DNA of 64,000 nt, from assembly GCF_900142825.1 (NCBI RefSeq), contig NZ_FRCH01000006.1:62001-126000 (forward strand), read 5' to 3'. Source of the DNA: Rhodanobacter sp. OK091. Lineage in GTDB: Bacteria; Pseudomonadota; Gammaproteobacteria; Xanthomonadales; Rhodanobacteraceae. The notes beneath the pieces were generated by a model. That model was not told the origin of the DNA, searched no databases, and was given only the letters and a program-made list of their open reading frames with translations. The position numbers and the translations under genes are program-made. Shown in pieces: positions 8,673 to 10,769 of the stretch (its first letter is position 1; each line of letters begins with the position of its first letter).

Positions 8673-9068
8673 ATGAGCGAGATTCCTGGCGATCTGAAAT
8701 TCCTCAAGTCCCACGAGTGGGCCCGCGCCGAAGACGACGGCCTGGTCCGCGTGGGTATCTCCGACCATGCGCAGGACCAGCTAGGCGATCTGGTCTACGT
8801 CGAGCTGCCGGAAGTCGGCTCGGCCGTGAAAGCGGGCGTCGGCGCCGCCGTGGTCGAGTCGGTGAAGGCCGCCTCGGACATCTACTCGCCGGTTTCCGGC
8901 GAAGTCGTCGAGGTCAACGAGCTGCTCAACGACAAGCCCGAGATCATCAATGAAGACGCCTTCGGCGAAGGCTGGATCTTCCTGGTGCGTCCCAGCGACC
9001 GTGCGGAGCTGGATGAGCTGCTCGACGCGAACGACTACGAAGAGCTGGTCGAGAACGAAGACCACTGA
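8673..9068 (+). CDS. gcvH: Glycine cleavage system H protein
   Basis: A 131-aa lipoyl carrier that shuttles the methylamine group between the P, T and L proteins. The lipoyl-accepting lysine is Lys65 in [14 protein letters not shown], and the N-terminal block [14 protein letters not shown] is typical. It lies 86 bases after gcvT on the same strand and is probably co-transcribed. A strong hairpin at 9089-9117 sits 20 bases after the stop and probably ends the transcript. Confidence 0.96.
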
Positions 9069-9324: not shown

Positions 9325-9656
9325 CCGAGTTTGCGTGTCGTCGCCGACGTCATCGCGCCGGAAAATGTCATCGCTCCCATGCTCTTCGGCGACGAGCGCC
9401 GGGGTGCCCGTCATCTTGGTCGAAGTCCGTGCGAGCCGGGGTGACGGACTTTTTTTGCCCGGTTCGGCGGGTCGGCCAAAATAATTTCAGTCGCGTCCCG
9501 TTCATCTGACGGAGGCAATGAAGCGGTCCGAATGCGGCCTTGCTGCGAGCGGTATTTTGCGCGAGATATTTTTTCTTCGCGACGGAGTCGATTGTTGGAA
9601 ACCGTTGTGCAGCAACGGTTTCGAAGGATATATACGTTTTCAACCGAAAAATATAT

Positions 9657-9672
9657 GGACGTATAGACGTCC
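9657..9672 (+). promoter_or_regulatory. Candidate tandem met boxes (MetJ operator)
   Basis: GGACGTAT followed directly by AGACGTCC forms two adjacent 8-bp units. Each keeps the ACGT core of the MetJ consensus AGACGTCT; the second matches it at 7 of 8 positions. MetJ dimers bind cooperatively to at least two tandem met boxes. The site lies 157 bases upstream of metJ-H1, which suggests autoregulation; it is too far upstream to overlap the promoter-like pair at 9772-9800. Confidence 0.5.
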
Positions 9673-9771
9673 AATTGGCAATGGTCTCAAATGGCCTTGA
9701 GGCCTTGCCGTAACCGGTTTTCGGTCGGTATGGGGAGGGGTGCAGTGGTTTGATTTCATGACTAAAATCAA

Positions 9772-9800
9772 TTGACAGGTGAAATCTTCAGGGATAGCTT
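9772..9800 (+). promoter_or_regulatory. Possible sigma-70 promoter of metJ-H1
   Basis: TTGACA at 9772-9777 is a perfect -35 hexamer. A 17-base spacer follows, then TAGCTT (9795-9800) as a weak -10. Transcription would begin about 20 bases before the ATG at 9829. Confidence 0.35.
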
Positions 9801-9828
9801 TCGCAACAGATCACGGGGAATGTGCTTT

Positions 9829-10365
9829 ATGGCGACAGCAAAATTCATCAAGCCTTATGTCGAGCACGGTGAAAAGGCCAACGCAGTACGCAAGATCACT
9901 GTCTCGATTCCGCTGCATGTTCTGCGGCGGCTCTCCGATTTGCGCACTCACCGCCAAGTGAACAATCTTCGGCACGCCACCAACAGCGACTTGTTGGTTG
10001 AGGCGTTCCTGCACGCTTTTACTGGGCAACCACTGCCAACTGATGAGGAGCTTAGACGAACCATGGCCACTGCCAAGAAATCCGCTGCAAAGAAACCGGC
10101 TGCCAAGAAATCGGCCGCCAAGAAATCCACCGTGAAGAAGGTCGCCGCCAAGAAGCCGGCTGCCAAGAAAGCTGCCGTGAAGAAGGTCGCGAAGAAGGCT
10201 GCGCCGAAGAAGGCCGCCGCCAAGAAAGCTGCGCCGGCCAAGAAGGCCGCCGTGAAGAAGGTTGCGAAGAAGGCTGCGCCGAAGAAGGCCGCCGCCAAGA
10301 AAGCTGCACCGGCCAAGGTGGTGAAAGCCACCAAGACCGCAAAAGCCTCCAAGGCCAAGAAGTAA
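9829..10365 (+). CDS. metJ: MetJ-type methionine repressor fused to a histone-H1-like Lys/Ala tail
   Basis: A 178-aa protein. Residues 1-78 are a clear MetJ ribbon-helix-helix repressor: [20 protein letters not shown] gives the DNA-reading beta strand, with Lys22 and Thr24 equivalent to E. coli Lys23 and Thr25. [20 protein letters not shown] and [21 protein letters not shown] then give helices A and B, which form the S-adenosylmethionine pocket. The last 25 or so MetJ residues are replaced by about 100 residues of KKAA/KKPAA repeats resembling bacterial histone H1-like proteins. The DNA of the tail holds two near-identical 75-bp units (10174-10248 and 10249-10323). ATG 9829 is chosen because it restores the MetJ N-terminus and has GGGGA upstream. 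The protein probably represses methionine genes, and the tail probably adds sequence-independent DNA affinity (inference). Confidence 0.88.
10174..10323 (+). repeat. Two tandem 75-bp coding repeats in the H1-like tail
   Basis: Units start at GCCGTGAAGAAGGT (10174 and 10249) and differ at only a few bases. Each encodes 25 residues of the pattern [24 protein letters not shown]. Such repeats expand and contract by slippage, so tail length may vary between strains. Confidence 0.8.
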
Positions 10366-10414
10366 GCTACACGCGACAAGCAACACCTCCAATAAGACAA
10401 GTCACCCGATACTT

Positions 10415-10485
10415 CCCTCCCCGCGGTGCCCAGCGCGGGGAGGGCATTTCGAGAAGCTTTCGTCCCGGCCTGGCCGGGACGCTTC
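10415..10485 (+). terminator. Two consecutive hairpins after metJ-H1
   Basis: The first is an 11-bp stem, CCCTCCCCGCG / CGCGGGGAGGG (10415-10425 with 10434-10444). The second is CGTCCCGG / CCGGGACG (10461-10468 with 10474-10481), extended by GAAGC / GCTTC (10453-10457 with 10481-10485), with GTTTG after it. They lie 50-120 bases past the stop and probably end the transcript, although the T-tract is short. Confidence 0.5.
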
Positions 10486-10769
10486 GTTTGTGGGGTCGGG
10501 AAAGATTCACCACGGCAGCAGAGGGCCGCCCGCGCCCATCCCGTGAGGGGCGCCGAGACCCCCGGCCGATTGATCGCCAGGCGGATGTCCGGCCTCCGGC
10601 CCTTGGAACAAAATCACTTTCCGCACCGTGCGTTCATGCACGATTTGCCGTGCTGGCTCATTGGAGTTACCTTTCCCCTATCCGCGCTGCGGTGAATCCG
10701 GGGGATTCGCCGCTCCTGGATCGACAGGGGGAAAAAGCGCGGGTATCTGTCGACACTCAGCGAGAGACC
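10486..10769. other. Intergenic stretch before the TonB-like gene
   Basis: With the hairpins before it, this completes a 404-base gap. An open frame extends upstream of the TonB-like gene into it, but its residues look like random GC-rich translation and no ribosome-binding site supports an earlier start. No regulatory motif was recognised. Confidence 0.4.

What the first reader, a model, noticed from the sequence alone, without database searches (positions are those of the whole stretch)
9829..10365. Methionine repressor MetJ carrying a histone-H1-like tail
Seen: residues 1-78 follow MetJ closely (RKITVSIPL strand, [27 protein letters not shown]). At residue 79 the protein switches to about 100 residues of KKAA repeats instead of the MetJ C-terminal helix. 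Established: MetJ is a SAM-dependent ribbon-helix-helix repressor of about 105 aa; H1-like Lys/Ala tails bind DNA non-specifically. Inference: a sequence-specific repressor has gained a nucleoid-binding arm, which could raise local DNA affinity, bridge sites or link methionine status to chromosome compaction. I cannot tell from here whether this fusion is already described in the order.
Basis: partly seen in the sequence, partly recalled or inferred. Interest (0 to 1): 0.85.

Follow-up and report, generated by a model that had tools for sequence, protein, structure and literature searches.

The report
MetJ repressor with nested histone-like protein
A family of soil bacteria carries its methionine-gene repressor fused to a positively charged, histone-H1-like tail, and a nearly unchanging stretch of DNA at the join suggests that the same gene also makes the tail as a separate protein.

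Summary
Window 9829-10365 (+) is one intact 178-codon gene: a MetJ core (residues 1-78), then 100 residues of Lys/Ala repeats. It is not a local oddity. MetJ was found in 146 of 147 genomes of the family (26 of 26 genera), and the 123 distinct tailed sequences I read join core to tail at the same point, within one codon. Two other families of the order have tail-less MetJ. The core still looks like a MetJ: paired MET boxes lie at a fixed place upstream of the gene across the family, and before metE in 8 of 8 metE loci of the genus.

Codons 63-74 are almost frozen at synonymous sites (1.8 versus 17.4 third-position changes per codon). A 33-base element there occurs in 224 of 233 family genomes and in 0 of 166 outside. 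It ends in a Shine-Dalgarno sequence before an ATG at residue 79, kept in 122 of 123 sequences. The best reading is a second start that makes a free H1-like protein, plus a cis element of unknown kind. SAM dependence is open, because helix C and two SAM-contact residues are missing. Nothing was tested at the bench.

The parts
9829..10365 (+). metJ-H1 fusion gene, 178 aa plus stop
   Evidence: PF01340 120.6 bits, NF003622 125.6 bits
9829..10062 (+). MetJ core, residues 1-78 (MetJ ribbon-helix-helix part; lacks MetJ helix C)
   Evidence: family alignments
10063..10362 (+). H1-like Lys/Ala tail, residues 79-178; also a 100-codon ORF of its own from ATG 10063
10015..10050 (+). Element frozen at synonymous sites (codons 63-74), ending in the Shine-Dalgarno sequence; the 37-mer 10015-10051 is identical in 125 of 158 loci (loci not all independent)
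10045..10050 (+). Shine-Dalgarno-like GAGGAG, 12 nt before ATG79; GAGGAG in 122 of 123 distinct tailed sequences
10063..10065 (+). ATG of residue 79, proposed internal start; Met in 122 of 123 distinct sequences, GTG in the other
9657..9672 (+). Two tandem MET boxes, about 157-172 bp before the start codon; position conserved across the family
9772..9800 (+). Possible promoter: TTGACA, 17 nt, TAGCTT; strongly conserved block before the gene
   Evidence: conservation; the consensus scan found no site here, so this is inference
8673..9068 (+). gcvH, upstream neighbour; a GcvH-type motif lies upstream in 80 of 80 named loci
10461..10481 (+). Terminator-like hairpin after the gene
   Evidence: 2 found, 2.0 expected in shuffles: weak

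Best explanation
The gene has two roles. (1) Its full product is a MetJ-type repressor that binds tandem MET boxes before its own gene and metE, probably a TonB receptor, possibly cysG and cysJ; its C-terminal helix has been replaced by a flexible Lys/Ala tail that should add non-specific DNA affinity. (2) Codons 63-79 double as an initiation region: a sequence element fixed across the family, ending in GAGGAG, lets ribosomes start at ATG79 and make the 100-residue tail as a free H1-like DNA-binding protein. Shown: the fusion, its spread, conserved operators before metJ and metE, and nucleotide-level constraint. Inferred: DNA binding by core and tail, internal initiation, and regulation through the element.
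For: Fusion: 146 of 147 genomes, 26 of 26 genera; one join, within a codon, in 123 distinct sequences. Own operator: a MET-box pair scoring at least 11 of 16 in 106 of 128 distinct upstream regions, all 106 between -190 and -140, against 7 of 128 shuffled. metE: a pair scoring 12-14 of 16 about 400-470 bp before metE in 8 of 8 Rhodanobacter metE loci (shuffle fraction 0 to 0.03 each), and 9 of 16 in the f2 locus L206, whose genome G047 had no MetJ. Window genome: 116 pair matches against 61 for the reversed pattern. Constraint: third-position changes 1.8 per codon in codons 63-74 against 17.4 in the 50 codons from residue 9; no 8-codon run as low in 20,000 codon-order shuffles; at codon 68 bases 1 and 2 changed 5 times and base 3 once. 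Element: 224 of 233 family genomes (189 of 192 good-quality ones), 0 in the reversed control, 0 of 166 outside the family. Start: GAGGAG and Met79 each in 122 of 123; Met kept in 4 sequences with a codon deleted; the exception, L158, lost element, GAGGAG and ATG together but has GTG. The mRNA is least structured at -10 to +10 around ATG79 of the 34 positions scanned in 57 sequences. Tail-less MetJs of f9 and f12 lack the element.
Against: No direct evidence of the short product. SD-ATG spacing of 12 nt is longer than usual (recalled). Predicted pairing of the SD is no better than in synonymous controls (46% of controls pair at least as much) and the structure has no compensatory changes. A start site alone does not explain constraint 35-50 nt upstream of ATG79, nor the strong local folding there. 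Operators: 22 of 128 upstream regions miss the score of 11; six of the eight metE scores only equal the best of 200 shuffles or less; of 22 best sites in the genome 14 lie inside predicted genes and five of the eight others have no clear methionine link; metF has none in 11 Rhodanobacter loci. Two SAM contacts are replaced in the window's lineage. PF07382 and NF038053 score the tail below cut-off.
Confidence: 0.55

Rival explanations
1. A fused repressor only. The tail is a DNA-binding arm, M79 is an ordinary linker residue, and the frozen block serves something else at the nucleotide level, such as a protein site on DNA, a small-RNA target or a promoter.
For: Constraint extends about 50 nt upstream of ATG79, more than a start site needs. 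The element is unique in the genome at up to 3 mismatches, as a site-specific signal could be.
Against: The frozen block ends exactly at GAGGAG; the next codon's third base is free again (14 changes) while ATG79 stays fixed through codon deletions. No sigma-70-like promoter was found in 9600-10500, no Rfam match on the element and no tRNA.
Confidence: 0.28
2. One reading: the tail ties a SAM-sensing repressor to the nucleoid and couples methionine status to chromosome compaction.
For: Core and operators are MetJ-like; tail composition is H1-like. MetJ in R. thiooxydans FW510-R12 rose with nitrate while four methionine enzymes fell (passages of PMC12146267; a correlation).
Against: Positions equivalent to the E. 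coli SAM contacts Glu39 and Arg42 are Leu and His here, and helix C is missing. Nothing computed here bears on compaction.
Confidence: 0.12
3. The tail is a neutral low-complexity repeat expansion.
For: Tail length varies from 34 to 309 residues and repeats are degenerate.
Against: Present in the sequences read from all 26 genera; 40% Lys+Arg, 4 acidic and 0 aromatic of 12,797 residues; a fixed join with a frozen element.
Confidence: 0.04
4. Sequencing or assembly artefact joining two genes.
For: Some draft contigs end inside or just before the repeats (L024, L057, L058).
Against: Intact in many independent assemblies, several of them single-contig.
Confidence: 0.01

Closest known systems
E. 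coli MetJ (PF01340; PDB 1cma, 1mj2)
   Same: MetJ core by profile and PDB match, MET-box operators. btuB is named as a MetJ target in PMC4239095 (passages); metE and autoregulation in E. coli are recalled.
   Different: Helix C replaced by an H1-like tail; Leu38/His41 in place of the SAM contacts Glu39/Arg42 in the window's lineage; possible cysG/cysJ sites; nested element and start
AlgP and PhaF of Pseudomonas (PMC9239181, PMC3574117: titles and abstract openings seen only)
   Same: Bacterial proteins with an H1-like part (tail arrangement recalled)
   Different: Their N-terminal parts are not MetJ and, as I recall, not sequence-specific repressors
Chlamydial Hc2 and Burkholderia H1-like proteins (PF07382, NF038053)
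   Same: Lys/Ala-rich composition; the proposed short product would resemble them
   Different: Scores below their cut-offs (28.1 of 40; 29 of 80 bits); here part of a repressor gene
SpaO/SpaO-short of Salmonella (PMC13059759: abstract opening seen only)
   Same: One gene giving a full-length protein and a C-terminal variant of about 100 residues
   Different: Unrelated protein; I did not look for a comparable frozen element there

Membership tests
MetJ (PF01340 / NF003622) | Profile score over the curated cut-off | tested here: met
   120.6 of 25 bits; 125.6 of 110 bits
MetJ (PF01340 / NF003622) | Beta-strand Lys and Thr that read the MET box (E. coli K23, T25; role recalled) | tested here: met
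   K22 and T24 in 123 of 123 sequences
MetJ (PF01340 / NF003622) | Tandem MET-box operators, including its own gene | tested here: met
   106 of 128 upstream regions at one position; shuffled 7 of 128. Binding itself not tested.
SAM-responsive classical MetJ | SAM contacts Glu39 and Arg42 (simulation paper PMC2775130, passages) | tested here: not met
   L38 and H41 in the window; Glu/Arg in 55, Leu with His/Tyr/Glu/Ser in 67, Glu/His in 1 of 123
SAM-responsive classical MetJ | C-terminal helix C | tested here: not met
   Replaced by the tail in the tailed sequences read
SAM-responsive classical MetJ | DNA binding that depends on SAM | not testable with these tools
   needs a binding assay
MetJ ribbon-helix-helix fold | Predicted structure matches MetJ | tested here: inconclusive
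   AlphaFold2 mean pLDDT 50.3, pTM 0.15; not searched
Histone H1-like HC2 / NF038053 | Profile score over cut-off | tested here: not met
   28.1 of 40 bits; 29 of 80 bits
Histone H1-like HC2 / NF038053 | Lys/Ala-rich, nearly free of acidic and aromatic residues | tested here: met
Gene with internal in-frame start | Conserved SD and start codon | tested here: met
   122 of 123 for each
Gene with internal in-frame start | Short product made in the cell | not testable with these tools
   no start-site or N-terminal data
SD-hiding RNA hairpin or thermometer | Covarying pairs and SD opening with temperature | tested here: not met
   no compensatory change in 16 distinct 37-mers; mean SD unpaired 0.34 at 10 C, 0.39 at 50 C over 15 sequences

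The most novel reading that the evidence does not exclude
A repressor gene holds a second gene: codons 63-79 form a family-wide cis-acting RNA (or DNA) element, matching no Rfam family here, that controls initiation at codon 79, so one locus makes a MetJ-H1 repressor and a free H1-like chromosomal protein in a regulated ratio.
Probability: 0.45. Interest if true: 0.85.

Novelty: new variant of a known kind. Interest (0 to 1): 0.7.

Why it matters
A sequence-specific repressor joined to an H1-like tail in every genus sampled of a family would show how a local regulator can become part of chromosome packaging. A coding stretch whose synonymous sites are frozen across 25 genera is unusual (my judgement) and can be tested directly: recoding it without changing the protein should show what it does. 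It also narrows the statement that MetJ is absent from Xanthomonadales, which rested on four genomes (PMC4239095, passages).

Tried and rejected
Frameshift or assembly error: rejected. MetJ repurposed without operators: rejected. SD-hiding hairpin: the 37-mer folds at -7.3 kcal/mol with SD pairing, but synonymous controls pair the SD as well (46%), its MFE is reached by 17% of controls, pairs do not covary and temperature has little effect. Hammerhead- or k-turn-like resemblance of CTGATGAG was considered and dropped, because GAC variants break it and Rfam gives nothing on the element. Overlapping ORFs in other frames were considered by eye only and dropped: the forward ones lose starts or stops between lineages, and an antisense ORF would not confine the constraint to 12 codons. 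Sigma-70 promoter: none found. tRNA: none. metF as a target: no pair above shuffled level in 11 Rhodanobacter loci. AlphaFold2: uninformative, not searched. Class-wide MetJ scan: 3 of 274 genomes, the window's own and two with open frames of 112 and 118. Rows dropped before counts: the synonymous-site tests used f1 loci only (f9 and f12 left out), one row per distinct sequence; one search used 158 of 161 loci, leaving out 3 too short; L130 was missed by the first motif and recovered. Of about 100 listed MET-box places, 22 with at most 1 mismatch were all read, and 20 stretches with 2 mismatches were chosen by eye, not at random.

Full report
WHAT IS THERE. The gene at 9829-10365 (+) is a single open frame of 178 codons. 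Residues 5-89 match MetJ (PF01340, 120.6 bits, cut-off 25; NF003622, 125.6 bits, cut-off 110; E. coli MetJ in the PDB, E 8.6e-31). The last 100 residues hold 39 Lys and 38 Ala and no acidic residue.

HOW WIDE. The window lies in a genome of a family the tool calls f1. The 80 loci kept of 189 matches in named genomes are mostly Rhodanobacter, Dyella, Frateuria and Luteibacter plus MAGs, genera that NCBI places in Rhodanobacteraceae, so I take f1 to be that family (inference). MetJ is found in 146 of 147 f1 genomes and 26 of 26 genera. In 142 of the 146 the open frame around the best match is 125-399 codons; in the other four (G112, G161, G165, G171) the match starts within 6 bases of a contig end, and the one genome without a match, G189, is a draft in 530 contigs. 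In a sample of 200 genomes of the order, 53 have MetJ: 34 of f1, 13 of f9 and 6 of f12. Three f9 proteins measured are 90-96 residues with another C-terminus; five f12 proteins measured are 79-81 residues, without helix C and without a tail. So a MetJ ending near residue 80 exists naturally, and I saw the tail only in f1. In a class-wide sample 3 of 274 genomes had MetJ, the two others with open frames of 112 and 118. A GcvH-type motif lies upstream in 80 of 80 named loci.

IT STILL LOOKS LIKE A MetJ. Two tandem MET boxes lie at 9657-9672. Across 128 distinct upstream regions, 106 hold a pair scoring at least 11 of 16, every one between -190 and -140; shuffled sequences give 7 of 128. In the window's genome the pair pattern has 116 matches at up to 2 mismatches against 61 for the reversed control (both strands, so near-palindromic sites count twice): about half is noise. 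Of 22 sites with at most 1 mismatch, 14 lie in predicted genes. Of the 8 outside, one precedes metJ, one metE (L172) and one a TonB-dependent receptor (L170, three boxes; its best NCBIfam hit is the B12 receptor model at 71 bits, far below cut-off, gene cut by the locus end); the other five (L165, L167, L178, L181, L182) have no clear methionine link. Among 20 two-mismatch stretches chosen by eye, two precede cysG (609 bits, over cut-off, with a divergent CysB-like gene; L228) and cysJ (582 of 668 bits, gene cut by the locus end; L232); most of the others lie in genes or without a link. The cys sites are therefore tentative. The metE site recurs about 400-470 bp upstream in 8 of 8 Rhodanobacter metE loci (scores 14, 14, 12, 12, 12, 12, 13, 12; shuffled maxima 12-13; shuffle fraction 0 to 0.03 each) and is missing (score 9) in the one metE locus from family f2, whose genome had no MetJ; 8 of the 19 genomes of the genus searched have metE. 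metF shows none. Residues equivalent to E. coli Lys23, Thr25, Glu59, His63, Phe65 and Leu70 are kept in 123 of 123.

WHAT IS MISSING FROM A CLASSICAL MetJ. PMC2775130 (a simulation study; passages read) names Glu39 and Arg42 as key SAM contacts and links helix C to the SAM response. In the 123 tailed sequences the two positions change together: Glu/Arg in 55, Leu with His, Tyr, Glu or Ser in 67, Glu/His in 1. The window has Leu38/His41, and helix C is gone.

THE HIDDEN ELEMENT. Codons 63-74 barely vary at synonymous sites. Among 127 distinct sequences, parsimony gives 17.4 third-position changes per codon for the 50 codons starting at residue 9 and 1.8 for codons 63-74; no run of eight codons was as low in 20,000 shuffles of codon order. 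At codon 68, bases 1 and 2 changed 5 times and base 3 once, so the nucleotide is kept more than the amino acid. The 37-mer 10015-10051 is identical in 125 of 158 loci, some of which are the same species fetched twice. A 33-nt version (up to 2 mismatches) occurs in 224 of 233 f1 genomes, 189 of 192 good-quality ones, 25 of 26 genera, with no match for the reversed control; in the order sample (up to 3 mismatches) it occurs in 34 of 200, all f1, hence 0 of 166 outside. It is unique in the window's genome. Such constraint means an overlapping function at the DNA or RNA level.

WHY AN INTERNAL START IS THE BEST READING. The frozen block stops exactly at GAGGAG, a Shine-Dalgarno sequence, 12 nt before the ATG of residue 79; the next codon's third base is free (14 changes). 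GAGGAG is present in 122 of 123 distinct tailed sequences and Met79 in 122 of 123, including four with one linker codon deleted. The only exception, L158 (genus g25), has lost the element and GAGGAG and has GTG in place of ATG. The tail-less relatives shown do not have the element. In 57 sequences the 40-nt windows centred at -10, 0 and +10 of ATG79 are the least structured of 34 positions scanned. The product would begin Met-Ala-Thr and run 100 residues, like free bacterial H1-like proteins. What this does not explain is constraint 35-50 nt upstream of the ATG, or the strong local folding centred 50-70 nt upstream. I tested an SD-hiding hairpin and a thermometer and found no support, and found no promoter, Rfam match on the element or tRNA. 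A sequence-specific RNA- or DNA-binding factor, or a small RNA, remains possible.

EXPRESSION. In R. thiooxydans FW510-R12, MetJ was measured in the proteome and rose with nitrate (r = 0.53) while four methionine enzymes fell; the authors call it a putative repressor, and the text does not contain the word histone (PMC12146267, passages). A named R. thiooxydans strain (LCS2, L060) carries the tail; I did not look at FW510-R12's own sequence.

PRIOR ART. PMC4239095 (passages) found MetJ in six gammaproteobacterial groups and in none of four Xanthomonadales; PMC6230763 (passage) says metJ is missing from X. campestris 8004. My searches, in a library of open-licence papers only and reading listings of the best 6-20 papers each, showed no paper on a MetJ-H1 fusion or on this element; most subscription journals are not in it. 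NCBI's own model already recognises the core as MetJ, so the gene itself is not new; the tail as a family trait, the operators and the element appear undescribed in what I could search.

MECHANISM AND CONFIDENCE. Fusion and spread: near certain. MET-box repressor: about 0.9. Nucleotide-level function in codons 63-74: about 0.95. Internal start making a free H1-like protein: about 0.6. Tail binding DNA: about 0.85, from composition and known analogues. Coupling of methionine status to compaction: about 0.12.

Noticed in passing
window 9770-9806: The leader before the gene (ATTGACAG..GAAATcTTcaGGaATAGCTTTCGC) is conserved across 81 aligned upstream regions, spacer included, more than a plain promoter would need.
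   Followed up: partly
L141-L146: Family f12 of the same order has MetJ proteins ending at about 79-81 residues, with neither helix C nor tail: a natural minimal MetJ.
   Followed up: partly
L225 1483-2181; L227: The genome has two further H1-like sequences: a free Lys/Ala-rich protein of about 233 aa (49.3 of 80 bits to NF038053) and a long ORF, by its look topoisomerase I (not tested), with a Lys/Ala tail.
   Followed up: partly
   Followed up: no
L024, L057, L058; G112, G161, G165, G171: Draft contigs end in or near the gene or its tail repeats, so some assemblies will show a falsely short or missing MetJ.
   Followed up: partly
L228, L232: MET-box-like pairs (2 mismatches) before cysG/cysB and cysJ hint that this MetJ may also control sulfate assimilation.
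   Followed up: partly
window residues 38 and 41: Two SAM-contact positions switch together from Glu/Arg to Leu with His, Tyr or Glu in part of the family, which may mark a change of corepressor.
   Followed up: partly
L090: A contig labelled Candidatus Eremiobacteraeota carries a typical Dyella-like fusion gene, probably a mislabelled or misbinned contig.
   Followed up: no
window 10418-10489: Weak Rfam match to anti-hemB (25.1 of 49.5 bits, E 0.0021) over the terminator-like hairpin, probably chance.
   Followed up: no
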